Source of the DNA: Caldilineaceae bacterium
GTDB lineage: Bacteria; Chloroflexota; Anaerolineae; Caldilineales; Caldilineaceae
Direction: 5' to 3'
Assembly (NCBI GenBank): GCA_022842065.1
Contig: JALHQH010000075.1
Location: forward strand, 1-45,970
Length of the DNA stretch: 45,970 nt
Made by a program: the position numbers and the translations under genes. Below are positions 7,398 through 45,032 of this stretch, piece by piece. Positions within the stretch are counted from its first letter, which is position 1; each line of letters begins with the position of its first letter. Below the pieces are notes generated by a model. That model worked only from the letters and a program-made list of their open reading frames with translations, did not search any database and had not been told where the DNA came from.

Positions 7398-8762
7398 TTA
7401 TGTTCTCCGTACTTGCATCCATAAGTCACTAATGGTTGCAAAGCGCGTCTGTGCCAATGGTGTGTGCTGGGGCTTTTGCACAGTTAACACATCCCAACCG
7501 GCATTGCCTTCGAGCAACAACGGCCCCGTGGCGACCAACGCTACATCCCACCCCAAAAAGACGTAACCGGGAAACTGTTGATGCGCCCGTTGCGCTAAGG
7601 CTACCGCCGCCGCCCAATCCGGCAAGCGCCGCCCCGTGATCGGCGCCCCGGTGACAGGATGCTGATCCACACCAGCACTGAGCGGGTGATAGCTGTAGGC
7701 GCGCCCCAACACACCCGTTGCCAGGTCAATGGCGCTGTTGAGGCCATGTGTGTTGATAATATTGGCGTGCCAGGCCATTTTGAAGGTAGCGGCAATCACC
7801 TCGATTGCGCCATCCAGCGTGCGACCGGTGACAATGCGCGCTGTTGCCAACGCACAAGGCGAGAGATCGGCAATCGCCGGGTGATTGTACAAGCGGGGTT
7901 GCACCAGATAGTCGCGCGTTTGGCTCATCTTTGCCAGCATTGCCAACAAAGCGGCCCAGGGGATTGGCTCTCCTTGCGGCTTCTGGTAGCGATCTGCATC
8001 CAGTCGCTGCCAAACGTTAGCCCCTTCACCACGCGCACCGGTGACGGGTTTGACAAAGAGATCGCCCGTGGCGGTGGCTTGCCAGATCACGTTTCCCCCT
8101 TTACACACGGCCCAAATCGGCACGGTCGGCAAGCCCTGTATCGCACAAAGGAACGCAAATTGTACTTTGTTATCAATCGCCGGGTGGCGGTGATGGCGGT
8201 TGAGATAGGGCAGCAGGCTACTGGCTTCATATTGATGGATATATTGATCCACCAGCGGTCGCTGCGCTGGGCGATAGAGTTCGTAGTGATAGTAGGCGAC
8301 GGGGGGCAAGCTGTGGCGGAAGGCCAGCCAAAGTTGCTCCAGCCCCTGTCGCCAGACCGGTTTGCCGGTGCGTTTGGCGATCACCGGGGCGTATTGGCGC
8401 AGGTTTTGCCCAATCAACCAACCCGCGCGCAACGGCCAGGTGATCGTCAGGGCCAGTGCCAACACCCAGCGTAAAAACGGCCAGCGGCCCCGGACTTGAT
8501 GATGGCTGGCCCATAGCCGTAACTGCTGCCCGGCATCGGGAACAGACCAGGGCGACCAGTGGATGTATAGCGGGCAGTAGTCACTGTCACCAAATTTTTG
8601 CCCAATTTTTTGCGCCAGCGTTGCCAAAGAACGGCGGCTTCTTTCCACCCTATCGTGCAAGGAGTGGAATCCCGTTCGGTTTGGTGACGATACCTGCCGC
8701 TTTGTGGCGATGGCCGGTGGTACGAGCGATGCAGCAGGGGGTGTTTTAGGTGGTATGGTCAT
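7398..8762 (-). CDS. Sugar-transfer-associated ATP-grasp protein
   Basis: The 454-aa protein carries the ATP-grasp fold of the family found next to sugar transferases. Visible signs are the ATP-binding Lys in FVKPVTGARGEG (about residue 240), an Arg-rich central part, and the C-terminal metal/ATP block GWDVALVATGPLLLEGNAGWDV (about 405-428). Family members are thought to ligate a carboxylate to an amine or hydroxyl during cell-surface sugar or small-molecule assembly; the substrate is unknown. The start at 8762 overlaps the end of the epimerase gene by 17 bases and has GGAGG nine bases upstream, so it is part of an operon with the two genes before it. Confidence 0.82.
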   Translation of the reverse strand: MTIPPKTPPAASLVPPAIATKRQVSSPNRTGFHSLHDRVERSRRSLATLAQKIGQKFGDSDYCPLYIHWSPWSVPDAGQQLRLWASHHQVRGRWPFLRWVLALALTITWPLRAGWLIGQNLRQYAPVIAKRTGKPVWRQGLEQLWLAFRHSLPPVAYYHYELYRPAQRPLVDQYIHQYEASSLLPYLNRHHRHPAIDNKVQFAFLCAIQGLPTVPIWAVCKGGNVIWQATATGDLFVKPVTGARGEGANVWQRLDADRYQKPQGEPIPWAALLAMLAKMSQTRDYLVQPRLYNHPAIADLSPCALATARIVTGRTLDGAIEVIAATFKMAWHANIINTHGLNSAIDLATGVLGRAYSYHPLSAGVDQHPVTGAPITGRRLPDWAAAVALAQRAHQQFPGYVFLGWDVALVATGPLLLEGNAGWDVLTVQKPQHTPLAQTRFATISDLWMQVRRT

Positions 8763-9723
8763 GGGTGGATGCCTCCACTTGTCGAAACCATTGTACGGTT
8801 TTTGCTATGCCGGCGCTAAAGGTGGTTTGCGGGGCAATACCGGCTGCGCGCAATTGCTGATTGCACCCAAGCCAAGCGGTTACATCGCCGGTCCGTTGGA
8901 CGCCAGAAAAGTACAGACGGGTTGGATCTTCCCCTAATTCTTGCAATACGCGCTGCCCTACCTCGGCAATGGTTATGCCTTGCCCAGCGCAGAGGTTGAA
9001 GAGTTGCCCAGTCGTTGGGCGCTCTTCCGCCAGCCGTAGCAGCATATAGGCAGCATCATCCACATAGGTGAAATCGCGTACTTCGGTGCCAGTGCCCCAG
9101 AGCGAAATCATACCTTGTGTCTTGGTTGCTTTTTGGCAAAGATCGTAGATCACCTGCTTCCGCTGATCTGGTCCATAAAGCGAAAAGAGCCGGGCAATCG
9201 TTAGCGAAAAGCCGTAGGCTTGCGCAAAGAGACGCGCATACCCTTCCGCTGCCAATTTGCTCATGCCATAGGGTGTGATCGGGTGGGTCGGCGCCGTTTC
9301 CGTAATCGGTAGTTGTGCTGGCTCGCCGTAGACGGCGGCACTGGACGCAAAAACCAAATGACCCCGAAAGCAAATGGTGCGCAATGCCTCCAGCAGGTGA
9401 ACTGTCGCCAGCAGATTGTGGGTAAAATCGACGGTGGGTGCTTGTAGTGAGCCGCTATTCTCTGCTCGACCGGCAAGATGAAAAACCGTATCAACCGGAC
9501 GATCGGCCAAGATTGACGGCAACCGGGGGTCAGCCAGATCCAAGATAAGAAAGGTAGGGGGTACCGCACTTTGTGGACAAGGGTGGGATTGGTGTGGCGG
9601 GGTGCGCCCCAATCCAATCACAAAAGCGCCTTGCTGTAGCAGGTGGCGACAAAGCACGCGGCCTAAAAAACCACCTGCGCCCGTAACAAGAACGCGTCGA
9701 CCGCCAATGGACCCTGCACTCAT
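8746..9723 (-). CDS. NAD-dependent sugar epimerase/dehydratase
   Basis: The 325-aa protein is an extended short-chain dehydrogenase of the nucleotide-sugar epimerase/dehydratase family. It shows the NAD-binding TGAGGFLG near residue 15, the catalytic Ser in ASSAAVYGEP and the Tyr-x-x-x-Lys pair in PYGMSKLAAEGYA, then the family's RLFSLYGPDQRKQVI and RDFTYVDDAA blocks. It probably makes or modifies a UDP- or dTDP-sugar in the cytoplasm. Its ATG overlaps the TGA of the upstream glycosyltransferase gene (9720-9723), indicating translational coupling. It may supply the donor sugar for that transferase. The exact product cannot be told. Confidence 0.87.
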   Translation of the reverse strand: MSAGSIGGRRVLVTGAGGFLGRVLCRHLLQQGAFVIGLGRTPPHQSHPCPQSAVPPTFLILDLADPRLPSILADRPVDTVFHLAGRAENSGSLQAPTVDFTHNLLATVHLLEALRTICFRGHLVFASSAAVYGEPAQLPITETAPTHPITPYGMSKLAAEGYARLFAQAYGFSLTIARLFSLYGPDQRKQVIYDLCQKATKTQGMISLWGTGTEVRDFTYVDDAAYMLLRLAEERPTTGQLFNLCAGQGITIAEVGQRVLQELGEDPTRLYFSGVQRTGDVTAWLGCNQQLRAAGIAPQTTFSAGIAKTVQWFRQVEASTHDHTT

Positions 9724-11399
9724 ACGGTTTCCTGCTTGTGAACAACCCGTTCCAGAAAATCAGTCAGGCCGATTATTGGCGCTGGATCAGCATAAAAGCG
9801 TGTTTTGTTAGCGGCCATCTGTTGGCGGATCGCACTGCGCAACGTCGCATCTTGCCCCAACTGGATGGCAAGGGACAGGTAGTGTTCCAGCGAATCGGCG
9901 ATGGTGGCGGTAACGCCCATCTGGCGCAAAATGCCAGCGCTGACATGGCCGCGCAAAAAGGCTCCCGGCAGAGTGATGATCGGCAGATCATAGGCCAGTG
10001 CTTCCAGCGTGGTGGTGGCCCCCCCTACCCCAATGCTGTCCAAAAAGAGATCGGCGAGTTGATTCAGCCGGTGATACGCGCCATCGCTGAGGCGTGGCAG
10101 CAGGACGACATGCCGGTTTTTGTCGATCCCCGCCGCAACAAAAGCGGTTGTCAGCCGTTGGGCAAAACGCTTGCTGGCCGGTTCGCTCACCGAACTCTGT
10201 AAGAAGACAAATTGGCAATCGATACCGGCGCGTTGCAATGCTTGGGCAATTTGCGGGTAGAGCGTGTCGTATTGTGGCAAATATTTAAAGAGCGCCTGTC
10301 CACAAAAATAGATGACTGCTGCGTTACGCAACCCCAATGTTTCTCTGGTGACCTCGGCGCTGGGGGTCAGCGGTAGTGGCGTGTAATATAGGGATGTGTT
10401 GGGCAGCCGCACCAGCCGCTCGCTGTAGTGTACAGCAGCAGCCGGTGGCTCGATCAGCTCACCGCTGAGAAAATAGTCGATGGTAGGTAGACCACTGGTG
10501 ACGTAATTGGCCCACGTTGTACATTGACAAGGCGCCAGGCGCAACGCTGCTAACTGTGTTGTCACTTTGCGCATGCTCACTTCCGGGTAGATGAGAATAT
10601 CCGGTTGATCTGCGCGGATCCACTGCACCCAGCTTGCGAGGGGATGTTGCCCTTCATAAAATTTACCGGCGCGGGTGGCGGTAAAGCTGGCACGCGCCTC
10701 GGCGGTTGCGTGATCCTGTGTTTTGGTGAGGGAGTACCCCAGCAAGGTAAACCGTTGGGGGTCCAGTTGGGTGATCCAACCTTTGATGACATCCTTCCAG
10801 ACCGAGTGTTGATAAAACAAGCCAGAGACAATGCCCAGGCGGATCGGTTGCCCAGCCGCGCGCAGCGCAGGGACAGGTTGTACTTGCCATTGCGGGTAAC
10901 AGGTCGTCATCACCTGGCTGATCAGGCGACCATAACAGGCCATCAGCGCCAGGTCATCGCCATCCTGATATTGCAGATAAAAGGGATTTACCTGCCCGAT
11001 CACCTCTGCCAGGGCTTGTAATTGCGCGATTGTCGCAGTGCGAACCTGCTCGACTAGCTCTTCCAACTGCTGGTGATACGTGTTCCGCGCCCGTGCCACT
11101 TCGGCGGTGCTGCGATAGATCATTGGTAATTGCAGCATGGCACGGTAAAAGTGCGCCACCAACGAGGTTGGGGCTTGCACTAACGCTTGTTCACAACAGG
11201 CCAGCGCCTGTTCTGTTTCGCCCAGTTCGCGGCAGGCCAGGGCCAGGGCAAAATAGCTCTCCAGGTGCGCTGGTTCGAGGGCAATGGCCTTTTGGTAAAA
11301 AGGAATGGCTAAGGCCGCCAGTTGTGGTGCTGGCGGCCTTTCCAGATAGTTTTGCGCCATTTGCCGATAGCTGGTGGCATCGGTTGTGGAGGTGGACAT
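9720..11399 (-). CDS. TPR-containing OGT-like glycosyltransferase (GT41 type)
   Basis: The 559-aa protein has N-terminal TPR repeats (about residues 30-110; pattern A-x-x-x-Y-x-x-A-L-x-x-x-P) and a C-terminal O-GlcNAc-transferase/SPINDLY-like catalytic region. Recognisable blocks are IRLGIVSGLF with a following His, a middle FLQSSV segment, the donor-site block LADLFLDSIGVGGATTTLEALAYDLPIITLPG, and the RGHVSAGILRQMGV motif. The family transfers a sugar from a nucleotide-sugar to Ser/Thr (or Asn) of a polypeptide. The start at 11399 has AAGGGAA just upstream. It follows the lasso precursor gene by 185 bases on the same strand and overlaps the epimerase by four bases. A peptide or protein acceptor is likely, and the lasso precursor is one candidate (inference). 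Confidence 0.82.
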   Translation of the reverse strand: MSTSTTDATSYRQMAQNYLERPPAPQLAALAIPFYQKAIALEPAHLESYFALALACRELGETEQALACCEQALVQAPTSLVAHFYRAMLQLPMIYRSTAEVARARNTYHQQLEELVEQVRTATIAQLQALAEVIGQVNPFYLQYQDGDDLALMACYGRLISQVMTTCYPQWQVQPVPALRAAGQPIRLGIVSGLFYQHSVWKDVIKGWITQLDPQRFTLLGYSLTKTQDHATAEARASFTATRAGKFYEGQHPLASWVQWIRADQPDILIYPEVSMRKVTTQLAALRLAPCQCTTWANYVTSGLPTIDYFLSGELIEPPAAAVHYSERLVRLPNTSLYYTPLPLTPSAEVTRETLGLRNAAVIYFCGQALFKYLPQYDTLYPQIAQALQRAGIDCQFVFLQSSVSEPASKRFAQRLTTAFVAAGIDKNRHVVLLPRLSDGAYHRLNQLADLFLDSIGVGGATTTLEALAYDLPIITLPGAFLRGHVSAGILRQMGVTATIADSLEHYLSLAIQLGQDATLRSAIRQQMAANKTRFYADPAPIIGLTDFLERVVHKQETV

Positions 11400-11459
11400 G
11401 ATTCCCTTGTGCAACAAGCGTGCCTTACATGCTAGTTTAGGCTATTCCGAAGCATTAAC

Positions 11460-11584: not shown

Positions 11585-11761
11585 CTAACTACCAGCAGTT
11601 GGCTTACAGGTGAACGATTCAGGGTTAGTCGGAGAGCTACCAGCTTGTGTCTGTTCGATATCCAAAATCGTGAGCTTGGGGGTATGCCAATGTTTAAGGC
11701 TGCGTTGCGCGTTGCTGGTATTGGTGACTGCTTCGGCGGCTAAGTTTGTCGGTTGGGTCAT
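11585..11761 (-). CDS. Lasso peptide precursor (predicted)
   Basis: The 58-aa peptide begins at an ATG with AAGGAG at the right distance (11768-11773 region) and starts 35 bases after the cyclase gene. Its leader ends in W-x-T-P-K-L-T-x-L-x(4)-T-Q, matching the lasso leader pattern aromatic-x(2)-P-x-L and the Thr at position -2 before the cleavage site. Cutting after Gln39 gives the 19-residue core AGSSPTNPESFTCKPTAGS, with an acidic residue (Glu48) exactly at core position 9, so an Ala1-Glu9 macrolactam ring and a 10-residue tail are predicted. The core ends in Ser, the residue phosphorylated in kinase-containing lasso pathways such as paeninodin. The single Cys is not explained. Function is inferred from the neighbouring protease, recognition element and cyclase. 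Confidence 0.82.
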   Translation of the reverse strand: MTQPTNLAAEAVTNTSNAQRSLKHWHTPKLTILDIEQTQAGSSPTNPESFTCKPTAGS

Positions 11762-11796
11762 AAAAAGCTCCTTACGGTGAATGGTGTTTACAAACA

Positions 11797-13707
11797 TTAC
11801 ATCAACTGTTGAATGGAAAAACATGTGAGCGCGTTTTGGATACCAGTCATCTGGCTCGGTTTCAGTTGTGTGATTTTTTTTCTCACCTCCTTTAAACTGG
11901 TCAATTGAATATAGTGCGCAAGACGTGGGGGATGCGGTTGCGCCAAGACCAGATCGAGCCACTGGGGGAATAGCTGGCGATAGGTCTGTTGCACAATGCC
12001 TACAGCGGCAGGGTCATTCTTGGGCGGGTTCCAGGGCATCGTTGTTGGTAGAATTCCTTGCCCCGCCCGCCGCAAGAGGGAGCGTGTCCGCCCGTGCAAA
12101 GAAAATTGCTCGGCTGGAATGCCGAGACAAAACTCAACAATACGGCGATCCAGCAACGGGTAGCGATAGACAAGCTGATGACGTGCGCCGTTGGTTGTCC
12201 AATCTTCCAAGCGGCGGGTCAAGTGACCATAGGCTAACCGCAAACGCTGGGTCGCATGGATCTGGGGCTGATTGCGAAAAGGTGGACTCTGCAATGCCGT
12301 CACGGCTGCTTGCTGACGGTGGGCAAAGGTTGGCTCGATATAACAATAGGGGTAGCGATTATCTGGTTTTCCGCCCATCAACCGCCGCCAAAGCGCTTCG
12401 GGCAAAAGCGGATAGCCGGCAAAGCGATAGAGTTGGAAACCCCACCGTTTGGCCTGGCGTAGCAGCGACACTGGCTCGCCACTATTATGAACCCGCTGCT
12501 CAATCTGGCGATAGAGTTGTCGCCAGTTGCCCTGCATCACCAGTTCCGCCAGATAATCGCTGGCATCAATCGAAACGACCTCATCGCCACCCCAGCCGGA
12601 AAGCAACACACGGAGATTGGCGGCTTGGGCTTGTTGCTGCACCTGTGCTTCGCGCCAGATCATCTCGGTGGGTTCGGTGGTGACATCGCGTTGCAGCACC
12701 GCCAATGCTTCGTTGACACCCGTGGTCAGATAGTGACAGGTCAACCCTTCCTGGGTACAGACCGCCGCCACCATGTGACGTTCATCGGTTACGGCCTGCT
12801 CGTCTGGCCTGATGGGTGGCGACCAGGAAAAAGTGGTCAAGGCTTTGTCGCGTTGGCGCAGGCTTTGGCTGGCCAACGCAGTTACGGTGGATGAATCTAA
12901 CCCACCGCTCAGGTGTGACCCTACAGCAAAGGGTGTGCGCAGGCGACAAGTCACCGCCTGTCGCAGCAAGTCGCGCAGGGCTTCCGCATAGGCTTCATCC
13001 GTGGCAAAGCGTACTTCCGCTGCCTCTGCTGGCGACCAATAACAGGCCAACTGCGTTCTCTCTGCCGTCACCGTGAGTGTGTGGGCAGGTGGCACTTTGA
13101 CAATGCCGTCCCAAAAGGTATAGCGTTTTTGGGCAGCGTAGGTCTGCTGTTGTAGATAAGCGGCTAACAACGGCTCATAAAGCTGCTTGGGGACAGACGG
13201 ATGTGCCAGCACACCTTTGATGTCGGAGGCAAAGATAAAGTGTTGGTTATTTTCATAATAGAGCAACGGTTTGTTGCCAAAAAGATCACGGGCGCAGAAG
13301 AGTTGCCGCTGCCGACCATCCCAAATGACAAAGGCAAAGTCACCGAGCAATTTTTCGACACAGGTCGCTCCCCATTTTTCATAGGCCAGCAAGATCAGCG
13401 TGCTATCAGGCATGGTGCTTTGTGCGGATGGCGGCACTGCCAGCAGGGCAAACAACTCGGCGCGGTTGTCCAGCCAGGCATCGGCGGTGATAACCAGATC
13501 GCGCCAATGCGGATGGGCAATGGGCAATTGTTCCGCTATGGATTCGGGGGTCGTGTGTAACATGCTATGCCCCAGGCCGACGGCGCCAGCGATCCACTGC
13601 CCATGACCATCCGGCCCCCAAACCGCCATCGCCGCCGCCAGAGGTGCGAGGCTTTGCGCGGTGATAGGTGCATCGTCTTTGTGAAAAATACCGTAGATCC
13701 CGCTCAT
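11797..13707 (-). CDS. lasC: Lasso peptide macrolactam synthetase (asparagine-synthetase-like cyclase)
   Basis: The 636-aa protein has an N-terminal class-II amidotransferase-like domain and a C-terminal asparagine-synthetase ATP-pyrophosphatase domain with SGGLDSS at about 267-273. The start Met-Ser-Gly-Ile-Tyr-Gly-Ile-Phe has Ser where true glutamine-using enzymes have the nucleophile Cys2, so it should not release ammonia. This is as expected for a lasso cyclase, which activates the side-chain carboxylate of the ring Glu/Asp as an AMP ester and lets the core N-terminus attack. The start at 13707 overlaps the TGA of the upstream B1 gene (ATGA), indicating coupling. A longer frame to 13815 lies inside that gene and is rejected. 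Ordinary AsnB is the alternative, made unlikely by Ser2 and context. Confidence 0.88.
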   Translation of the reverse strand: MSGIYGIFHKDDAPITAQSLAPLAAAMAVWGPDGHGQWIAGAVGLGHSMLHTTPESIAEQLPIAHPHWRDLVITADAWLDNRAELFALLAVPPSAQSTMPDSTLILLAYEKWGATCVEKLLGDFAFVIWDGRQRQLFCARDLFGNKPLLYYENNQHFIFASDIKGVLAHPSVPKQLYEPLLAAYLQQQTYAAQKRYTFWDGIVKVPPAHTLTVTAERTQLACYWSPAEAAEVRFATDEAYAEALRDLLRQAVTCRLRTPFAVGSHLSGGLDSSTVTALASQSLRQRDKALTTFSWSPPIRPDEQAVTDERHMVAAVCTQEGLTCHYLTTGVNEALAVLQRDVTTEPTEMIWREAQVQQQAQAANLRVLLSGWGGDEVVSIDASDYLAELVMQGNWRQLYRQIEQRVHNSGEPVSLLRQAKRWGFQLYRFAGYPLLPEALWRRLMGGKPDNRYPYCYIEPTFAHRQQAAVTALQSPPFRNQPQIHATQRLRLAYGHLTRRLEDWTTNGARHQLVYRYPLLDRRIVEFCLGIPAEQFSLHGRTRSLLRRAGQGILPTTMPWNPPKNDPAAVGIVQQTYRQLFPQWLDLVLAQPHPPRLAHYIQLTSLKEVRKKITQLKPSQMTGIQNALTCFSIQQLM

Positions 13708-13997
13708 GATTGGATGGTGACAAGCCCAGCATCGACCAACGCTTGCGCAAAGACGGCGACTTCCTGTTGACACGTTTCGGCATCGACCGCAAATTCTTGG
13801 CGTAGGGTTGCGCATAGATCAGCCAGGCTTTGTGGTTGCGCCAACAGCGCCCAAACGCGACTGCCCACCTCGTCCAACCCGTAGTAGTTGTTGCGGGTCA
13901 AACTCATCATCACTGTCTCATCCCCCATCTCTGCCGCCATGATATCCGCGTTGCGTTGTAGGCGTGTCGTTGGGGTTACATAGGTTGTCATTGTCAT
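13704..13997 (-). CDS. lasB1: PqqD-like RiPP recognition element (lasso B1)
   Basis: The 97-aa protein has the PqqD fold pattern: LxxNxDIxAxEMGDE, then a beta-hairpin and the block YYGLDEVGSRVWALL, followed by a three-helix half. Such proteins bind the leader peptide and hand it to the protease and cyclase. The ATG at 13997 follows AGGAGGT. It is translationally coupled to the cyclase gene. In two-part lasso systems this protein (B1) works with the separate cysteine protease B2, here encoded at the head of the operon. Confidence 0.9.
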   Translation of the reverse strand: MTMTTYVTPTTRLQRNADIMAAEMGDETVMMSLTRNNYYGLDEVGSRVWALLAQPQSLADLCATLRQEFAVDAETCQQEVAVFAQALVDAGLVTIQS

Positions 13998-14098
13998 ACT
14001 TACCTCCTGTTTTTACGGGTTAAACCGGGGCTAGAATCGTAAGTACGGTTTGTAACCGCGCCTATGATCTCAATCTGCTAGATTTGTGTTGAGCCTTT

Positions 14099-14971
14099 TT
14101 ATGCTTGAATTTCCCCGTTCTCGCTCAAATAGCCAAAGCGGCGCATCACCGCCCCGTGATCGTACACGATCCGTTGTACTTGTTCTGTCGTCAAGACAGT
14201 GCGCCAATCGCCACTTTGGCCTTTGCGGAAAAAAGAGGTGGCCGCCGCGGCTTTTTCTTTAAAGCCAGTTGTCTGTTCTTGTTGCTGCAACTTGGCAAAA
14301 GTGGCATGGTGCAAGGCGCGTTGCAAACGAATTTCCTCAACCGGTAAACCGGCAAAATGCAATGCTGCCCCAAAGGTGCCAACTGGGTCGCGCAGCATCT
14401 CCTCGTAGCGCATCAAGTGCAGGGCTAGATCGGGTTCAGTCAACCAACTTTGCACATGCGCGCTCCAACTGCGCAAAGTTTGTGGCAATTGAATGGGCAA
14501 ACGTTGCCGCTGCTCACCTGTCCGTGCTTGTGGGTTGCCCATCCAATCAATCGTTTGATCGATCGCTTGGTGATTATGGTGCGCATAGGAGACGACTACA
14601 TCCAATGGGTTGCGGATCAGATAGATTGCCCCTTTTGTGGCTGTTTTAGAAAGTAACGGGATGCCTTGTGGGGTGTAGGTAAAGGCATCGTGAACTTTCA
14701 TAAAGATCGGTTCAGCGTTCGCCGCCGTGGTTTCGGCAACCAGTTGTTCATACAGCATTGGGCGGAACGCTTCGATCTCGGCTGGTGTCAGGTCAGACGC
14801 TTCCACCCCAAGTACATCATCAAAAAGCAGCCGATCACAGGCGAGCGGTGTGCGTTCTAAGGCGTTGATGTTGGCCGGCTGCGGGTTGTTGCGCAGATAG
14901 TTGGTCAATACAATGCGTAACCAAGTATTGCCCGATTTGGGATAGGAGGCCAGCCAGATGATCTTGCCCAT
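14099..14971 (-). CDS. PAPS-dependent sulfotransferase
   Basis: The 290-aa protein is a cytosolic-type sulfotransferase. Near its start is the 5'-phosphosulfate loop SYPKSGNTWLR (about 8-18), and the 3'-phosphate-binding block IRNPLDVVVSYAHH lies in the middle; a C-terminal FRKGQSGDWR matches the family's RKGxxGDWK co-substrate motif. It moves a sulfo group from PAPS to a hydroxyl or amine of a small molecule or peptide. The start at 14971 is five bases after the kinase stop; a longer frame (to 15028) overlaps the kinase gene. As an inner gene of a lasso operon, its likely acceptor is the lasso peptide or its precursor (inference). A 102-base gap to the B1 gene downstream shows no other gene. 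Confidence 0.88.
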   Translation of the reverse strand: MGKIIWLASYPKSGNTWLRIVLTNYLRNNPQPANINALERTPLACDRLLFDDVLGVEASDLTPAEIEAFRPMLYEQLVAETTAANAEPIFMKVHDAFTYTPQGIPLLSKTATKGAIYLIRNPLDVVVSYAHHNHQAIDQTIDWMGNPQARTGEQRQRLPIQLPQTLRSWSAHVQSWLTEPDLALHLMRYEEMLRDPVGTFGAALHFAGLPVEEIRLQRALHHATFAKLQQQEQTTGFKEKAAAATSFFRKGQSGDWRTVLTTEQVQRIVYDHGAVMRRFGYLSENGEIQA

Positions 14972-14976
14972 GATGG

Positions 14977-15885
14977 CTACTCTCTCTCCCAATCGGCGGC
15001 TAGGCGTTGGGTCAATTCTTCCAAGCAAAAAACAGCCGCTGGACGGGTAACGCGCGCTACGCGTACTTGTTTGGCAATCTGTGTCAGTTGTTGAAAATGT
15101 TGCTGGCGCATCCCCAGCCCAGCTAAGAAGCGTTGGCGATAGGTATGCGCCACCAGTGTCTCCATTTTTTGCAAGTGCGCCAATGGCTCAATCTGCCAGT
15201 GATTCAGGTTGCTGGGAGTAAGCAGATAGACGGCGTGCAGAGGCAGCGGCGTTGGATCAAAATCACCCTGTAGGGAGAGCGCATACTTTTCCAATTCAGG
15301 ACGCACCCGGCGGGTGGCGACTGCGGTTAATGCCAACTTCTCGGTGGCGTCTGCCCACAACTTCAGGTGAGCCAAGCCTGGGTACACCAAGGCTTGTTGG
15401 GTTGCGACATCATAGATAAGCGAGCAAACATCATCGGCCAAGACGCGGTAGCCCCGCTGGTGAAGGGCTGCCGCTAGCGTCGATTTGCCCACCCCTGATG
15501 GCCCCGTAAAGACAACGGCGCCACGCTCGGTCTCTACGGCACTGCCATGCAAGATGACCTGGCCGCGTTGATGTAAGAGCGCGCCGAGGACAGACCCGAG
15601 CAAAAAGAGGCGGATGGTCTCTTCAGCGCTATCTGCGGCCGGTTCAACCGTAATCTGCTTGCCATCCTGCACCCAAAAACGGGCAACCTGGTCAAGCTTG
15701 AGCAAGAACTGATTGGGTTTGGCTTGGTAAAGGACGCTCTGTTTGGCTGGGTTTTCCAGTGCGGTTGGCGTTGGCCCCAGACGAATGCAGAGATCGGGGC
15801 CATGTCCATTCGGTTCGACTGGTGCAAGTTCGGGACAACACAAGTCGGAAGTTATATATAAACCATGAGCGAAATAGTGATACAT
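14977..15885 (-). CDS. HprK-like kinase of the lasso operon
   Basis: The 302-aa protein resembles the C-terminal kinase part of HPr kinase. It has ILHGSAV (His113), the P-loop GPSGVGKS (about 128-135) and the second metal/nucleotide site VLADDVCSL (about 148-156), but no HPr-binding N-terminal domain. Kinases of this type in paeninodin-like clusters phosphorylate the C-terminal Ser of the precursor. The neighbouring precursor here does end in Ser, which fits. The start at 15885 lies 17 bases after the B2 stop. The family context is established knowledge; activity on this precursor is inferred. Confidence 0.85.
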   Translation of the reverse strand: MYHYFAHGLYITSDLCCPELAPVEPNGHGPDLCIRLGPTPTALENPAKQSVLYQAKPNQFLLKLDQVARFWVQDGKQITVEPAADSAEETIRLFLLGSVLGALLHQRGQVILHGSAVETERGAVVFTGPSGVGKSTLAAALHQRGYRVLADDVCSLIYDVATQQALVYPGLAHLKLWADATEKLALTAVATRRVRPELEKYALSLQGDFDPTPLPLHAVYLLTPSNLNHWQIEPLAHLQKMETLVAHTYRQRFLAGLGMRQQHFQQLTQIAKQVRVARVTRPAAVFCLEELTQRLAADWERE

Positions 15886-15902
15886 CAGGTTGATCCAAGC
15901 GT

Positions 15903-16364
15903 TTATGGGTTTGCACGAAAGCGGGCAACCACAGCATACCTTTCCAGTTGACCGTCGCCGGTCACAATACAACCATTACTGCGTAACCAGGCATGAGCAA
16001 CCAACCCATTGTCTGCTTCCTTCATCACGCCTAAGTAAAGCATGCTCACGATTCGGCGGCGCCGTAACATGATCTGGCCAGCCAAAGCTTGGGCCAAACA
16101 ATTGCTTCGCCAGGGCGTGCGGCGGCTGATCACGCGAATGGCCCAAGTCACTTGTTGAATTTCGCCTTGTTGAATTTCACTAAGGTTCGTTGGTGGTGGC
16201 GACAGCTCAATCATGGTTGGGTGTTGCCCTAAAGCGGCCATGATCCGCCGCAATGGCAGCGTCAAGACGGCCGCCCGCGCCAGCCCAAGCCAGAGGCTTG
16301 CTTCAAGGAGTAGCCAATGCCTTCGGTTAGATAAAATGAGACAACGAGTAAATCGCAAACGCAT
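15903..16364 (-). CDS. lasB2: Lasso leader peptidase (transglutaminase-like, B2)
   Basis: The 153-aa protein matches the cysteine protease of lasso pathways (McjB C-terminal part). It shows SNCLAQALAG with nucleophile Cys89, LVAHAWLRSN with His124, and GDGQ with Asp137, forming the expected Cys-His-Asp triad, preceded by a hydrophobic N-terminal stretch (about 17-45). It cuts the leader after the Thr-x step and frees the core N-terminus for ring closure. The ATG at 16364 has GAGG 11 bases upstream; a GTG at 16388 in frame would add eight residues and cannot be excluded. It is the first gene of the operon. Confidence 0.88.
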   Translation of the reverse strand: MRLRFTRCLILSNRRHWLLLEASLWLGLARAAVLTLPLRRIMAALGQHPTMIELSPPPTNLSEIQQGEIQQVTWAIRVISRRTPWRSNCLAQALAGQIMLRRRRIVSMLYLGVMKEADNGLVAHAWLRSNGCIVTGDGQLERYAVVARFRANP

Positions 16365-20036: not shown

Positions 20037-20118
20037 TATTCACTGTTCACTGTCTCACTGTCTCACTGTCTCACTGTCTCACTGTCTCACTGTCCACTGT
20101 CCACTGTCTCACTGTCCT
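20037..20118. repeat. 8-bp CACTGTCT tandem repeat
   Basis: About nine units of CACTGTCT (with CACTGTCC variants) run head to tail. The array overlaps the 3' end of the PqqD-like gene: its last codons and its TGA stop (20109-20111) are made of repeat sequence. This suggests slippage-driven growth into the gene end. Confidence 0.85.
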
Positions 20119-20384
20119 ACTAACTTCTCCGCGCGCAATTCATGCACCAAGGTGGCGACCGCTGCTTCGGCTTCCCCCTGACTTAGCGCATAGTAGGCAG
20201 CTAAACGCTGGCCAATTTCAGCCAAGCTCTGCTGCGCTTGAATCCCCTGCCAAATCTGTGCGCCACTCTCATTCAGGGTGTAATAGCGGCTGGTTTGCAG
20301 ATGCAACAGGACGATACCTTCATCAGGCAACTGGCTGGTGAGCACGTCCGGATGGGGTGCGAGTTGGGTATCGCTGGTAAACAT
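20109..20384 (-). CDS. PqqD-like RiPP recognition element of the satellite cassette
   Basis: The 91-aa protein shows the PqqD pattern: a hairpin with EGIVLLHLQTSRYYTLNESGAQIWQGI, then a three-helix C-terminal half. It is close in type to the B1 protein of the lasso operon. The ATG at 20384 has AAAGGAT upstream and lies 21 bases after the kinase remnant, so it belongs to the cassette precursor-kinase-recognition element. It would bind the leader of the 66-aa precursor at 21703-21903. The last few codons are encoded by a tandem repeat. Confidence 0.85.
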   Translation of the reverse strand: MFTSDTQLAPHPDVLTSQLPDEGIVLLHLQTSRYYTLNESGAQIWQGIQAQQSLAEIGQRLAAYYALSQGEAEAAVATLVHELRAEKLVGQ

Positions 20385-20405
20385 GATTTGATCCTTTGTA
20401 TTATA

Positions 20406-21411
20406 TTACGCCGTTGCCGGCGTCGCCAGCAGCAGTCGACTGACCGCCGCGGGGTCGTGAAAGACATCGCTCCCGGCGTCAAATTGGTAGCCGCGACACT
20501 GGGTGACCAGCGTCTGATAGAGGGTCAGCAAGGTCGGCAGCGCGGTCGGCTCGACGAGTAGCCAACTGTGCTGCTGCCCGACCAGGCGGGTGAACGATTG
20601 CATAGCCGTCAGCGGGGTCAACGTGCTCTGGGCGGCCGGCGCAATCTGCGGAAAGAGGATCAGGTAGGGCCGACAGGTGGATTGATAGCGCTGGGGGTAG
20701 AGCGGATCGAGATCGACCAGCGTCTTCCAGCGATTCAACGCCACCCCTGTCGTCCAGGCCGGGGCCAGCCAGGGCCCACTGCGCCGCGGTTTCGACCGTG
20801 CAGGCAAAACCACGGCGGACGGCATGGGCCATCACCCCGGCGGCGGTTGGTTGGAGCAACACATTGTCATCGGAAAGATAGTGCCAGCCCGCGGCGATCA
20901 GGCTCATGGTCAGGGTCGTCTTGCCCGCGCCACAATCGCCCACCAGCAACAGCCCGCCCGCTGGTCCAGGGGTAGGCGGGATGAGGGCGTTGGCGTGGAG
21001 CAGGTGACAATCCACCGTGCGGCTCAACAGGAAAAAGAGCCGCTGCCAAAAGTCGCGCTGCACAACCAGTGCCTGCGCCCAGAAATCATCGGCCAGATAG
21101 CCGGCGGCGGCCCCGTGCGTCACCGCCAGCCGGCTCTGCCCCAGCCCCAGATCGAAACCGGTGCTGGTCGGCCAAATCATCGCAGGACCAAAGTAGACCA
21201 CCCCCGGTTGATTGGCGAGCAAGGCCGGCGGCGCGGTTGGCGTTGCCGCCAGGTTGACCGTCAGCGTGGCACCGCTCTCGGCAGTGGGTATAGGCGTGGG
21301 CGGCAGCCGAAAGAGCTGGGCCCAGTGGGCGGCCAGCCGTTGTTGGACCAACCCGTTGGCACATTGCACCCGCAGCATGAGTGGCCCAAACGCATAACAT
21401 TGTTCGTGCAT
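20406..21411 (-). pseudogene. HprK-like kinase, frameshifted
   Basis: Read with one frame change, the product is about 335 residues. The N-terminal part (21411 to about 20765) holds HLLHANALIPP, the P-loop GDCGAGKTT and the HYLSDDNVLL site; the C-terminal part (about 20765 to 20406) continues in the next frame with NRWKTLVDLDPLYPQR. Removing one base from the four-base G run at 20761-20764 would join the two frames smoothly. It is therefore either a recent pseudogene or a sequencing error. It is a second kinase of the type found in phosphorylating lasso clusters. The start is the ATG at 21411, with AAGGA about ten bases upstream. Confidence 0.8.
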
Positions 21412-21465
21412 CGTGCACATTTCCTTGATCGTGCTTTGACATGCGTACGTAGGTGTACGAATACC

Positions 21466-21705
21466 GTGTTACCGAAATTTTGCTGGATAAAAGCTGCGTT
21501 CGTCCCAGCGGGGCGGTTGACCTTATAGATAACACAACTAAACGTGGCACAATTGTGTACTGTGCATCCCCTGATGCACAGACCGCTTTGTGTCAACTCT
21601 ATTTGTTTTGTCTATTAGGACCAAGAAAATCATGATATTTCCCGCCTCAGGTCAACCGTCCCGCTGGGACGAAAAACCCAGCAAAATTGCCGTCACACTG
21701 TACTA
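21466..21705. repeat. MITE-like inverted-repeat element, copy 1
   Basis: The arms 21475-21522 and 21650-21688 are reverse complements built around CCAGCAAAATT and GTCCCAGCGGGGCGGTTGACC, with about 127 bases between; inside is a hairpin TGTGCATC/GATGCACA. The right end ACACTGTACTA matches the ends of elements at 25095 and 33762. It lies between the satellite precursor gene and the kinase. Read on the minus strand, the terminal TAGTACAGTGT contributes the TAG stop of the precursor. Confidence 0.75.
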
Positions 21706-21903
21706 GCCGCCGAATGAGTCATCCGGCTCAAAACTACTGCCAAAGTCTTGGGTTAACCCAGCCACCGTGCCATGCGGGGTCAGCTTTGGGGGGACGTAGC
21801 GGGGGGGCGGTGGCTGTGGTGGCTGTGGTGGCTGTGGTGGCCGGGGGGCCGCGGGTAGTGTGGCGGGCAGGGCGGTTGGCGTTGGTTTCGTCGAGTAATT
21901 CAT
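21703..21903 (-). CDS. Lasso-like RiPP precursor of the satellite cassette (predicted)
   Basis: The 66-aa peptide starts at an ATG with AAGGAG upstream (minus strand, near 21912-21917). The N-terminal part is Pro/Gln-rich, followed by the lasso leader pattern Y-V-P-P-K-L-T-x-x-G-x(4)-L-T-Q. Cutting after Gln52 gives the 14-residue core [14 protein letters not shown], with Asp at core position 9 (Glu at 7 is an alternative ring residue). The core of the other precursor likewise has GSS early and Pro8 followed by an acid at 9. A kinase remnant and a PqqD-like gene follow on the same strand, but no cyclase or protease does. The TAG stop lies at the end of a MITE-like element. Confidence 0.72.
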
Positions 21904-21918
21904 TGTCTGTAGCTCCTT

Positions 21919-22064
21919 TTCGTGATGCGTGATGTGTGAAACGTGATGCGTGATACGTGATGCGTGATACGTGATGCGTGATGCGTGATACGTGATGCGT
22001 GATACGTGAAACGTGATGCGTGATACGTGAAACGTGATGCGTGATACGTGAAACGTGATGCGTG
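21919..22064. repeat. GTGATGCGTGATACGTGAAAC tandem array
   Basis: About 145 bases are made of 10-base words GTGATGCGTG, GTGATACGTG and GTGAAACGTG in a semi-regular order. It occupies the region directly upstream of the satellite precursor's ribosome binding site. On the minus strand it stays open and would encode repeated Arg-Ile-Thr-(Phe/Tyr)-His-(Val/Ala)-Ser, which is not considered real protein. Confidence 0.9.
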
Positions 22065-22113
22065 AACTACCCGGTGGCACAACATGTAGCACGCAACACG
22101 CAGCACGCTTCCC

Positions 22114-39325: not shown

Positions 39326-40372
39326 ATGAACCGCAGCGGCTACCACTTGCGCTTACTACTACTGTTGGTGTTCCTATTGAGTGCTTGTCTACCAGTGAAA
39401 CCGACGGCAACAGCAGAGCACGATACCACCAACGCTGGGGCATTGACCGATCTGAACGTTTGTTACAGCTCCGCCAGCGCCACCCAATCGGTCATGATGT
39501 ATGCCTACGAAAAGGGCATCTTTCAACAATATGGGCTGGCCGTGAAGCTGATCTATATCGAAGGCGGCTCGACCGCAACCATGGCCCTGTTGACGGGCGA
39601 GGTGGATATTTGCCAGATTGCCGGCCCGGCGGTCATCAATAGCGTCGTGGCCGGGAGTGATCTGGTGCTGATCGGCGGCCTCTTTAACACCTATCTTTAC
39701 TCGCTGATGGTGCGGCCAGAGATTACCACCGCGGCCGATCTCAAAGGCAAAGCGCTGGCGATTAGCGACCCAGGTAGTTCGTCTGATGTTGCCATCCGTG
39801 CCGCGTTACAGTCGCTTGGCCTGAAAGCAGAGGCCGATGTTGCCTTGCTCTCGATTGGGGCACAAGGGGCACGGCTGGCGGCGATGGAGAGTGGGGCAGT
39901 CGTTGGGACGCTGGTCAGTGTGCCGGAAACGGCGGTTGCGCGCGCCGCCGGCTACTGGGAAATGGTGGACATGGCCGCGTTACAGACCCCCTATCAACAT
40001 ACGGCGTTGACCACCTCACGCACCTTTTTGCGCGAAAATCCAGCCATCGCCACGCAATTTCTCCAAGCCACCCTGGCCGCGATTGCCCAAATGAAACAAG
40101 ATCAGGCCGGGGTGACGGCAGTGCTGGCCCAATACTTGTTACTGGATCCAGAACAGGATGCGGCGGCGCTGGCCGAAGCATATACGAGTCTCATTGGCAA
40201 CTACCTACCACTGGTGCCTTATCCAACCCTGACTGGCATCCAGTTACAGTTGGATGAATTGGTCGCTGATAACCCCGCGGCGGCCTCGATCACGGCGGCG
40301 GATGTGGTCGACACCACCCTCTTGGCGGCGATCGAGGCGAGCGGCTTTTTAGCACAACTGGAGCAAAAATGA
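39326..40372 (+). CDS. ABC importer substrate-binding lipoprotein
   Basis: The 348-aa protein begins with a lipoprotein signal (MNRSGYHLRLLLLLVFLLSAC; lipobox LSAC, lipidated Cys about 21). The mature part has the NMT1/SsuA-like fold pattern (YAYEKGIFQQYGLAVKLIYIEGGSTATMALLTGEVDICQIAG ... AISDPGSSSDVAIRAAL). It captures the substrate outside the membrane and gives it to the permease. The start at 39326 has AAGGA five bases upstream; an earlier ATG at 39305 has a weaker site. The ATG of the next gene overlaps its TGA. Confidence 0.88.
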   Translation: MNRSGYHLRLLLLLVFLLSACLPVKPTATAEHDTTNAGALTDLNVCYSSASATQSVMMYAYEKGIFQQYGLAVKLIYIEGGSTATMALLTGEVDICQIAGPAVINSVVAGSDLVLIGGLFNTYLYSLMVRPEITTAADLKGKALAISDPGSSSDVAIRAALQSLGLKAEADVALLSIGAQGARLAAMESGAVVGTLVSVPETAVARAAGYWEMVDMAALQTPYQHTALTTSRTFLRENPAIATQFLQATLAAIAQMKQDQAGVTAVLAQYLLLDPEQDAAALAEAYTSLIGNYLPLVPYPTLTGIQLQLDELVADNPAAASITAADVVDTTLLAAIEASGFLAQLEQK

Positions 40373-43171: not shown

Positions 43172-44971
43172 ATGCAACCAAATTTAGCGGTCTACCGCCA
43201 AGTATTTAGCTTAGTGCGCCCCTACCCGACCCTGCTGATGGCATTGGTGGTTGCAACGTTACTCAGTACACTGGCCGAAGGGTTGGGCCTGAGCTTGATT
43301 CTGCCGTTATTGGACACCAACGTCATCACCAACAACTTTTTACAGGATATACCACTGCTGGGCGCGGTGAGTCAATGGACGGCCCAGCTAACCTTGGCCG
43401 AGCGGGTACGCTGGACTGCGGTAGCATTGGTCATTATGATGCTCTTACGCAGCTTTTTTGCCCTGACAACACACCTCTTGGCCATGCGCCTGCAACTTAC
43501 CGTGGAGCGGGATTTGGAAAGGGCGGTCTTGCAGCAACTGCACGACTTGCAGCTTGGCTTTATTAATGGGCTGAAAATGGGCGATCTGGTGACTTTTCTC
43601 AGCCACCATGTGCGGCAGTGTGGACGGTTACTCCAAAGTTTTAATAACGGTCTGGCCAATGGGTTTACACTGTTAATCTATGTCGTGTTGGCGCTGCTCA
43701 TTTCGTGGCCATTGACGTTGCTGGCGTTGGGGCTGGTGTTGATCTTGGCAGTGGTAGCCAAACGGGGATTTGCGACGCGGATCAAAGCGGCGGGGAAAGC
43801 CGAAATCAGGGCCATGCGCGAGCTACGGACACTGACGGTGGAGAGCCTTACCGGGTTGAAGCTAATTCACCTTTTTGGCTGTGAACCCTGGAACCTGGCC
43901 CGCCTGGAAGCCAAGCTAGCAAACTATCAACAGGCAGCCTATGCCAGTCAGCGGCAGCTCCACTTATCCCGCCACAGTGTGCTCTTATTGGCCGTCTTCC
44001 TGTTAAGTGGCCTGTTAATCAGCAGTACCTTTCTCCTGGGCGATGGGTTAGGGGCGTGGCTGGGCCGCATTACCCTATTACTGGTCATCGCCTTTCGGTT
44101 GATCGGCCCCATCGCAGCACTCAGTTTGTTGAACTCGCAAATCATCAATCTGACCCCGACCCTCCAGGGGGTGTTCGACTTTCTGAACCGTGCCGATAAA
44201 CCCTATCTACACAATGGCACACAGCACTTTACAAGCTTGCAACAGGGCATACGGCTGGAAAATATCACCTTTTGTTATGCGCCAGCGGAAGCAGAAGTAT
44301 TAAAAAATGTCTCGTTTGTCATCCCCAAGGGGCAGCTGACCGCAGTAGTTGGCCCTTCTGGTGCGGGGAAATCGTCACTGGTCAATCTACTGGCGCGCCT
44401 GTACGACCCTACCCTGGGGCAGCTTTACATTGATGGTGTTGATCTGCGTCTGCTCGACATTACCAGTTGGCGCACCCAAATTGCCGTTGTTAGTCAGGAT
44501 ATCTTTATCTTTCACGACACAGTGCGCGCCAATCTGCAATTTGCCCGCCAAAACGCAACCGAGGCCGAAATTATTGCCGCAGCCCAATTGGCGCAAGCCC
44601 ACAACTTTATTATGGCATTACCCGACCAGTATGACACAATACTTGGCGACCGGGGCGTTCGGCTTTCCGGTGGGCAACAGCAGCGGATCGCCATTGCGCG
44701 CGCAATCTTGGCCGATCCGCAATTGCTGATCTTTGATGAAGCCACCAGTGCGCTCGACAGCGAAACCGAGCAAGCGCTACAGCAAGCGATTGAACAGTAT
44801 GGCCACACCCGGACCCTGCTCGTCATCGCCCATCGCCTCTCGACGATTAGAAAGGCCGATAATATCGTAGTTCTGGATGGCGGCCGGGTGGTAGAGCAGG
44901 GCTCCCATGCCAAATTGCTGGCAACGGCTGGTCACTATCGACGGCTGGTCGAAGCACAGAATTGCCCCTGA
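43172..44971 (+). CDS. ABC exporter (MsbA-like, TMD-NBD fusion)
   Basis: The 599-aa protein has a membrane part of about six helices (1-320) and a nucleotide-binding part (340-599) with VVGPSGAGKSS, VVSQDIFIFHDTV (Q-loop), RLSGGQQQRIAIARA, LLIFDEATSALDS and the switch His in VIAHRLSTI. It works as a homodimer to export lipids, lipopeptides or peptides. It starts two bases after the acyltransferase fusion stop, so it likely exports that product. It could also serve as the missing exporter for the lasso peptide at 11585-16364, though nothing in the sequence shows this. Confidence 0.9.
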   Translation: MQPNLAVYRQVFSLVRPYPTLLMALVVATLLSTLAEGLGLSLILPLLDTNVITNNFLQDIPLLGAVSQWTAQLTLAERVRWTAVALVIMMLLRSFFALTTHLLAMRLQLTVERDLERAVLQQLHDLQLGFINGLKMGDLVTFLSHHVRQCGRLLQSFNNGLANGFTLLIYVVLALLISWPLTLLALGLVLILAVVAKRGFATRIKAAGKAEIRAMRELRTLTVESLTGLKLIHLFGCEPWNLARLEAKLANYQQAAYASQRQLHLSRHSVLLLAVFLLSGLLISSTFLLGDGLGAWLGRITLLLVIAFRLIGPIAALSLLNSQIINLTPTLQGVFDFLNRADKPYLHNGTQHFTSLQQGIRLENITFCYAPAEAEVLKNVSFVIPKGQLTAVVGPSGAGKSSLVNLLARLYDPTLGQLYIDGVDLRLLDITSWRTQIAVVSQDIFIFHDTVRANLQFARQNATEAEIIAAAQLAQAHNFIMALPDQYDTILGDRGVRLSGGQQQRIAIARAILADPQLLIFDEATSALDSETEQALQQAIEQYGHTRTLLVIAHRLSTIRKADNIVVLDGGRVVEQGSHAKLLATAGHYRRLVEAQNCP

Positions 44972-45032
44972 CCCTTAAGGCAGCTTATCCATTCTGGATC
45001 GGGCCATTGTTGATTACGTTAGGTTATTGAAC

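What the first reader, a model, noticed from the sequence alone, without database searches (positions are those of the whole stretch)
11585..16364. Lasso peptide cluster with both a kinase and a sulfotransferase
The operon has all parts of a lasso pathway (B2 protease with Cys89-His124-Asp137, PqqD-like B1, cyclase lacking Cys2, precursor) plus an HprK-like kinase and a PAPS sulfotransferase in between, all within a few bases of each other. Phosphorylated lasso peptides are known (paeninodin type). A sulfotransferase inside the operon points to a sulfated or doubly modified lasso peptide. No exporter lies in the operon, and the precursor gene is last instead of first.
Basis: partly seen in the sequence, partly recalled or inferred. 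Interest (0 to 1): 0.85.

Follow-up and report, generated by a model that had tools for sequence, protein, structure and literature searches.

The report
Lasso operon with kinase and sulfotransferase
This is a bacterial operon for a small knotted (lasso) peptide that also carries a phosphate-adding and a sulfate-adding enzyme; the same two enzymes stand side by side in lasso operons of distantly related bacteria, so the product is probably a lasso peptide bearing both groups, though nobody is known to have isolated one.

Summary
Minus-strand operon B2-K-ST-B1-C-A (16364-11585) encodes a lasso protease, HprK-like kinase, PAPS-type sulfotransferase, RRE (PqqD-like) protein, lasso cyclase and a 58-aa precursor with WxxP leader, Thr(-2) and core AGSSPTNPE-SFTCKPTAGS. 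A kinase-alignment scan of genomes gave 72 loci; with the window, 33 of 73 have the sulfotransferase directly downstream of the kinase (eight phyla by title), one more beside a second kinase, 39 lack it. In reverse, 25 of 25 sulfotransferase loci at E<=2e-40 have the kinase next to it, 2 of 10 weaker ones do. Kinase and sulfotransferase co-vary most tightly of ten gene pairs. Precursors end in Ser in 42 of 45 cases, background 11%, as expected for C-terminal Ser phosphorylation. The sulfate acceptor is unknown; a second Ser/Thr/Tyr is likeliest, evidence weak. The pairing was noticed in 2014 and a sulfotransferase in 2016, role open; my searches found no sulfated lasso peptide. New here: a kinase-sulfotransferase cassette conserved across phyla, sometimes without a cyclase nearby. 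The product is inferred, not shown.

The parts
15903..16364 (-). B2 leader peptidase (transglutaminase-like cysteine protease), C89-H124-D137
   Evidence: NCBIfam NF033537 99.8 bits vs cut-off 33; Pfam PF13471; residues
14977..15885 (-). K, HprK-like peptide kinase
   Evidence: HprK-related models, all under their cut-offs; H113, G128, K134, S135, D151, D152 at the same spacing as residues tested in BsfK (PMC10368454, passage); H113, K134, S135, D151, D152 invariant in 27 sequences
14099..14971 (-). ST, PAPS-dependent sulfotransferase
   Evidence: Pfam PF00685 104 bits; YPKSGNTW, KVH, R-S and RKG motifs (roles recalled); model pLDDT 93.8, Foldseek best hits are cytosolic sulfotransferases
13704..13997 (-). 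B1, discrete RRE (PqqD-like)
   Evidence: Pfam PF05402 68.8 bits; NF033536 77 bits, cut-off 80; AGGAGG upstream
11797..13707 (-). C, lasso isopeptide cyclase, no Cys2
   Evidence: NF033535 489 bits, cut-off 525; next asparagine synthase 212
11585..11761 (-). A, precursor peptide, 58 aa
   Evidence: PadeA_fam 20.8 bits, cut-off 27; leader profile from relatives 8e-06 (the window's own leader was among its seeds, and the ORF was taken from an upstream ATG)
11645..11761 (-). leader, 39 aa, WHTPKL motif and Thr at -2
   Evidence: WxxP and Thr(-2) shared with relatives
11588..11644 (-). core AGSSPTNPESFTCKPTAGS; predicted ring Ala1-Glu9, C-terminal Ser19
   Evidence: position of Thr(-2) and Glu; inference; relatives

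Best explanation
The operon makes a 19-residue lasso peptide without an internal disulfide. B1 binds the WxxP leader and hands the precursor to the tailoring and processing enzymes. [quoted passage not shown] ST, made from the next gene 5 nt downstream, transfers sulfate from PAPS to a second hydroxyl (Ser/Thr of ring or loop) of the same leader-bound peptide. B2 then removes the leader after Gln(-1) and C closes Ala1 onto Glu9 around the tail. Shown by sequence: all genes, the expected active-site residues, conserved K-ST adjacency, C-terminal Ser conservation. Inferred from characterised relatives: order of steps and C-terminal Ser phosphorylation. Pure inference: that ST acts on the peptide, and where.
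For: Complete lasso set and precursor. ST directly downstream of K (same strand, open frames within 200 nt) in 33 of 73 loci, beside a second K in 1 more; 31 of the 33 carry at least one of B1, B2, C. Reverse search: K next to ST in 25 of 25 loci with E<=2e-40, of which 17 were not brought in through the kinase. K-ST distance correlation 0.85 in 16 loci, the other nine pairs 0.46-0.65. The rest of the cluster is reshuffled around a fixed K-ST order. C-terminal Ser in 42 of 45 precursors picked by leader alone, background 393 of 3559. Characterised kinases of this kind phosphorylate the C-terminal Ser of the linear precursor (PMC8498205, PMC9266682, passages) or Ser3 (BsfK). ST fold and motifs are those of a PAPS sulfotransferase.
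Against: No product known. 39 of 73 kinase loci have no ST. The second hydroxyl has no fixed position; the test that precursors of ST loci always hold another Ser/Thr/Tyr (31 of 31 vs 11 of 14 without ST) is weak: Fisher p 0.026 per precursor, 0.067 per locus, hydroxyl share not different (p 0.12 and 0.10), 4 independent pairs of which about 2 in favour and 0 against, not significant. Some ST loci have precursors not ending in Ser (one of four in L006, L037, L101, two in L102, L114). Some K-ST pairs lie without a cyclase in the DNA read.
Confidence: 0.6

Rival explanations
1. ST does not use a second side chain but modifies what K made: sulfate goes onto the phosphoserine, or onto a group attached to that phosphate. 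This would explain the strict K-ST pairing.
For: The only near-universal hydroxyl in these cores is the C-terminal Ser. In pseudomycoidin a second enzyme builds on the phosphate (hexoses; PMC9266682, passage). K and ST are nearly always adjacent when ST is of this type, and co-vary.
Against: A sulfate-phosphate anhydride would be labile and I know of no such sulfotransferase (recalled). The family whose representative is nucleotidyltransferase PF14907 occurs near only 13 of 34 ST loci and no such domain was hit in the 35 window ORFs scanned, so a sugar added by it is not needed. The three parsed precursors without any other hydroxyl are all in loci without ST.
Confidence: 0.15
2. K phosphorylates an internal Ser (Ser3 of the core, as BsfK and LppK do), and ST works elsewhere.
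For: The window core has Ser3; BsfK and LppK both use core Ser3 (PMC10368454, PMC13381572, passages).
Against: Position 3 varies in the relatives while the C-terminal Ser is kept in 42 of 45. BsfA itself ends in Asp.
Confidence: 0.12
3. ST is a passenger or acts on another molecule (for example a surface sugar), and the product is only a phosphorylated lasso peptide of the paeninodin kind.
For: Sulfotransferases of this superfamily are very common (6718 hits at E<=0.001 among 7999 scored candidates); the window has a second one of another Pfam type at 45027-45872; some K-ST pairs have no cyclase near; 39 of 73 kinase loci do without ST.
Against: Adjacency and order kept across phyla and highest co-variation with K; ST lies between lasso genes, 5 nt after K.
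Confidence: 0.13

Closest known systems
Paeninodin gene cluster (Paenibacillus dendritiformis) and other C-terminally phosphorylated lasso peptides
   Same: B1, B2, cyclase and HprK-like kinase, WxxP leader, C-terminal Ser
   Different: No sulfotransferase is named for paeninodin itself in the passages read; precursor, B1 and C score below the curated cut-offs; no exporter in the operon here; paeninodins were called restricted to Bacillota (PMC13381572, passage)
Lasso clusters with HPr kinase and/or sulfotransferase noted in anaerobes (2014) and Firmicutes (2016)
   Same: Kinase and sulfotransferase genes in lasso clusters (PMC4289311, passage; PMC8498205 citing Zhu 2016, passage)
   Different: In the 2016 case the sulfotransferase was described at the start of the cluster; role left open in both; here it follows the kinase, and the pair recurs in many phyla
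Pseudomycoidin cluster
   Same: Kinase plus a second tailoring enzyme
   Different: Second enzyme is a nucleotidyltransferase homologue linked to hexoses on the phosphoserine (PMC9266682, passage), not a sulfotransferase
Linear polyphosphorylated peptides (LPP)
   Same: RRE plus HprK-like kinase; the K-ST-PqqD sets without a cyclase nearby in small cyanobacterial genomes resemble this
   Different: The LPP paper has no word beginning 'sulfo'; LPPs use a signal-peptidase-like protease
TEG12 and cytosolic sulfotransferases (SULT)
   Same: Fold and PAPS motifs; TEG12, solved with teicoplanin aglycone, is the best PDB hit by sequence
   Different: 23% identity or so in the structural alignment; TEG12 acts on a finished nonribosomal aglycone

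Membership tests
Lasso peptide biosynthetic cluster | B2 leader peptidase of the lasso type with Cys-His-Asp | tested here: met
   NF033537 99.8 bits, cut-off 33; residues
Lasso peptide biosynthetic cluster | Asparagine-synthetase-like cyclase of the lasso type without Cys2 | tested here: inconclusive
   Best model is the lasso cyclase (489 bits), under its cut-off of 525; residue 2 is Ser
Lasso peptide biosynthetic cluster | RRE (PqqD-like) protein | tested here: met
   PF05402 68.8 bits, cut-off 23.4; the lasso-specific NF033536 is at 77, cut-off 80
Lasso peptide biosynthetic cluster | Precursor with Y/WxxP leader, Thr(-2), Asp/Glu at core 7-9 | tested here: met
Lasso peptide biosynthetic cluster | Threaded macrolactam product | not testable with these tools
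   needs expression and MS/NMR
Paeninodin family (NCBIfam PadeA_fam) | Precursor above curated cut-off | tested here: not met
   20.8 bits, cut-off 27; I therefore call it paeninodin-like, not a member
Paeninodin-like phosphorylated lasso peptides | HprK-like kinase with H, P-loop K/S and DD residues | tested here: met
   residues, spacing as in BsfK; but Hpr_kinase_C at 31.5 is just under its Pfam cut-off of 33.3
Paeninodin-like phosphorylated lasso peptides | C-terminal Ser | tested here: met
   window; 42 of 45 precursors in the set
Paeninodin-like phosphorylated lasso peptides | Phosphorylation of that Ser | not testable with these tools
   no biochemistry
PAPS-dependent sulfotransferase (PF00685) | Domain above cut-off with PAPS motifs and catalytic His | tested here: met
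   104 bits, cut-off 22; motifs (roles recalled); fold
PAPS-dependent sulfotransferase (PF00685) | Peptide acceptor | not testable with these tools
   only context evidence

The most novel reading that the evidence does not exclude
Kinase and sulfotransferase form one portable cassette that writes phosphate and sulfate onto the same leader-bound ribosomal peptide. Lasso clusters in at least eight phyla use it, and small cyanobacterial genomes carry the cassette beside an RRE-like gene without a lasso cyclase in the DNA read. This would define an unrecognised class of phospho-sulfo ribosomal peptides, lasso and linear.
Probability: 0.35. Interest if true: 0.75.

Novelty: new variant of a known kind. 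Interest (0 to 1): 0.56.

Why it matters
My searches listed no report of a sulfated lasso peptide (the 2022 review of lasso modifications, PMC9266682, has no word beginning 'sulf'). A cassette kept across eight or nine phyla suggests that the double modification is useful, and it is directly testable: two enzymes, one 58-residue substrate, and an accurate-mass signature that tells phosphate from sulfate by 9.5 mDa. It also extends the WxxP, kinase-bearing lasso type, called restricted to Bacillota in a 2026 paper (PMC13381572, passage), to other phyla, and gives a lead to a possible linear counterpart.

Tried and rejected
Rejected: C as an ordinary asparagine synthetase. Tyrosine as the general sulfate acceptor: 24 of 31 parsed precursors of ST loci hold no Tyr, the window none. 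A sugar added by a nucleotidyltransferase as the needed acceptor: that family lies near only 13 of 34 ST loci. Ser3 as the general kinase site. Promoters and terminators: not clearly above shuffles (4 vs 3.9; 10 vs 7.4, sd 2.9); the stretch after A folds somewhat better than shuffles (z -2.4, 4 of 200 as well), undecided. A hydroxyl test for the acceptor was only suggestive. The own genome is not held, so other lasso genes or an exporter elsewhere could not be sought.

Limits: locus HMMs for B1, B2 and C were bootstrapped from the window proteins, so remote forms may be missed. K-ST adjacency was counted on stop-to-stop frames (same strand, gap under 200 nt); it was read by eye from the HMM tables. 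The first precursor profile used seeds chosen to end in Ser; one search repeated it with leader-only seeds without that condition, and only that count is used for the C-terminal Ser. One search used the hits with E under 0.01: one was dropped for lack of a motif, and 4 of 35 of ST loci and 2 of 16 of the others found no ring; its scoring slightly favours nine-residue rings. The kinase tree is a quick one with 24 open branches; ST presence changes at least 16 times on it against 23.8 in shuffles. The genome searches drew 400, 292, 297 and 296 genomes from the phyla of L007, L003, L027 and L024 (E cut-off 1e-15 in the first, 1e-10 in the others).
Full report
What is there. The minus-strand operon reads B2 (15903-16364), K (14977-15885), ST (14099-14971), B1 (13704-13997), C (11797-13707), A (11585-11761). 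Gaps are 17, 5, 101, -4 and 35 nt. Family models place B2 firmly in the lasso family (99.8 bits, cut-off 33); the cyclase fits the lasso cyclase model best (489, cut-off 525; asparagine synthase 212, cut-off 267); B1 is 77 against 80 for the nearest lasso PqqD model and clearly PqqD in Pfam; the precursor fits the paeninodin model at 20.8 against 27. So it is a lasso cluster, paeninodin-like, but outside the curated paeninodin family.

Precursor. MTQPTNLAAEAVTNTSNAQRSLKHWHTPKLTILDIEQTQ | AGSSPTNPESFTCKPTAGS. The leader has WxxP and Thr(-2); Ala1 and Glu9 would make a nine-residue ring; the last residue is Ser. One Cys (13), so no internal disulfide.

Kinase. H113, G128, K134, S135, D151, D152 have the same spacing as H148, G163, K169, S170, D186, D187 of BsfK, whose replacement impaired solubility or activity (PMC10368454, passages). 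H113, K134, S135, D151 and D152 are invariant in 27 aligned sequences. Similarity to HPr kinase proper is limited to the stretch around the P-loop and is under the curated cut-offs.

Sulfotransferase. Sulfotransfer_1, 104 bits. The PAPS loop (YPKSGNTW 10-17), KVH (92-94), R120 to S128 and RKG (249-251) are present (roles recalled). The AlphaFold model (pLDDT 93.8) matches cytosolic sulfotransferases and TEG12 in Foldseek (TM about 0.6-0.67); TEG12 is also the best PDB hit by sequence.

Do kinase and sulfotransferase co-occur? Forward: a scan of genome contigs with a kinase alignment gave 72 loci. With profiles for the five families, 33 of 73 loci (window included) have ST directly after K on the same strand; one more (L040) has ST beside a second K; 39 have none, 37 of them with over 1 kb of DNA downstream. 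At least one of B1, B2, C lies near K in 31 of the 33 and in 34 of the 39. By record title the 32 loci outside the window fall in eight phyla: Chloroflexota 8, Bacteroidota 7, Pseudomonadota 6, Acidobacteriota 5, Cyanobacteriota 2, Verrucomicrobiota 2, Hydrogenedentota 1, Thermodesulfobacteriota 1; L040 (Walliibacteriota) would make nine. The other genes are shuffled around a fixed K-ST order, for example K-ST-B1-C-B2 (L004), B2-K-ST-B1-C (window), C-K-ST-B1-B2 (L002).

Reverse: the window ST was sought in 7 genomes chosen through the kinase and in 400, 292, 297 and 296 genomes of four phyla. Of 35 distinct ST loci, 27 have K next to ST, one of them (L091) only a kinase fragment. With E<=2e-40 it is 25 of 25; of the 10 weaker ones, L084 (cut by a contig end, 62% identity) and L093 have K, and L090 and L117-L123 do not, six of these eight being three tandem pairs of another sulfotransferase type at 30-33% identity. 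Of the 25, seven (L073-L079) come from the chosen genomes and L082 appears to be the L002 contig (same length); the other 17 were not brought in through the kinase, though L086, L091 and L092 are near-identical copies in one genome. Wider DNA was read for 16 places. A cyclase was found for 9 of the 17. Seven of the others (L085-L089, L091, L092, cyanobacteria of 2.1-2.9 Mb judged by phylum and size) have only a PqqD-like gene on the other strand, and one (L097) has none of B1, B2, C in 18 kb. Independently, 14 contig lengths over 4 kb are shared between the 120 best ST and 120 best K hits of the large protein search, the window's own left out (my comparison by eye), which suggests the same contigs.

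Co-variation. In 16 ST loci that hold all five genes, pairwise distances of K and ST correlate at 0.85; the other nine gene pairs at 0.46-0.65. In 29 loci K-ST is 0.76.

Precursors. With a leader-only profile, 45 precursors were found in 29 loci; 42 end in Ser (32 of 33 in ST loci, 10 of 12 in others), against 393 of 3559 small reading frames searched. WxxP is found in 30 of 31 parsed precursors of ST loci and 8 of 14 of the others, although paeninodins were described as restricted to Bacillota (PMC13381572, passages). Exceptions in ST loci: one of four in L006, L037, L101, two in L102, L114, which do not end in Ser. So the C-terminal Ser is the best kinase target, but not in every relative.

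Where does the sulfate go? No second hydroxyl has a fixed place. All 31 parsed precursors of ST loci hold another Ser/Thr/Tyr; 3 of 14 in loci without ST hold none (L034, L036, L054). Two of those three have ST-bearing sisters in the kinase tree (L034 with L059, support 94; L054 with L064 and L072, 99). This points to an internal hydroxyl, but weakly: Fisher p 0.026 per precursor, 0.067 per locus, no clear difference in hydroxyl share (p 0.12 and 0.10), 4 independent pairs of which about 2 in favour and 0 against. Ser3, Ser4, Thr6, Ser10, Thr12 and Thr16 are the candidates in the window.

Mechanism. Known kinases of this kind act on the linear precursor and not on the threaded peptide (PMC8498205, PMC9266682, passages), and B1 speeds phosphorylation in bsf. 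I infer the same for ST: B1-bound linear precursor, phosphate on Ser19, sulfate on a second hydroxyl, then leader removal and ring closure. The two charged groups may keep the tail threaded or aid export; this is a guess.

Prior art. PMC4289311 (2014; one passage) reports an HPr kinase and a sulfotransferase in some lasso clusters of anaerobes, role unclear. PMC8498205 (2021; passages) says that the 2016 paeninodin study saw a sulfotransferase gene at the start of some Firmicutes clusters; that paper itself is not held. PMC9266682 (2022 review of lasso modifications; passages) has no word beginning 'sulf'. The searches (lists, some capped at 15) listed no paper that I recognised as reporting a sulfated lasso peptide; I opened eight papers and read passages only (of PMC13381572 also the abstract), and most subscription papers are not held. 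So the gene pairing is not new, the product would be, and I found no account of the cross-phylum K-ST cassette in what I could search.

Verdict. Observation confirmed; interpretation supported as a prediction. A new variant of a known kind (phosphorylated lasso peptides), of moderate to good interest because it is conserved, unexplained and easy to test.

Noticed in passing
window 20109-21903 (-): A second RiPP-like set: small ORF (21703-21903) with a YVPPKL...GLTQ leader-like motif, an HprK-like ORF (20479-21420) and a PqqD-like gene (20109-20384). No B2 or cyclase profile hit lies beside it. By eye the kinase reading seems to change frame near 20.75 kb (described only).
   Followed up: partly
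L103-L108 (small cyanobacterial genomes): Kinase-sulfotransferase pairs at about 35% identity beside a PqqD-like gene on the other strand, with no cyclase or B2 profile hit within the 18-20 kb read; several copies in one genome (G595). Possibly linear phospho-sulfo peptides.
   Followed up: partly
L109: Two lasso-type precursors (WQTP or LQAP leader, both ending PAS) about 6 kb from a K-ST pair; between them ORFs that look by eye like an ABC transporter and a nucleotidyltransferase (no family search), and kinase fragments; no cyclase hit in the stretch read.
   Followed up: partly
window 45027-45872 (+): A second sulfotransferase of another Pfam type (Sulfotransfer_3, 126 bits) after an ABC transporter (43172-44971) and an AMP-binding/PP-binding protein (40369-43170).
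   Followed up: no
window 9720-11417 (-): TPR plus glycosyltransferase family 41 protein on the same strand, 167 nt after the precursor gene (start codon uncertain). Whether it recurs beside relatives was not tested by itself; a peptide glycosyltransferase would fit the theme.
   Followed up: no
window 7398-8762 (-): Sugar-transfer associated ATP-grasp protein next to an NAD-dependent epimerase (8746-9723).
   Followed up: no
L001 7946-8821: Four different precursor genes in a row in one kinase-sulfotransferase lasso cluster; L006, L020, L026 and L027 also hold several.
   Followed up: no
window 21900-22100 (-): Run of short repeats (variants of cacgcatcacgtatcacg) upstream of the second RiPP-like ORF.
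   Followed up: no
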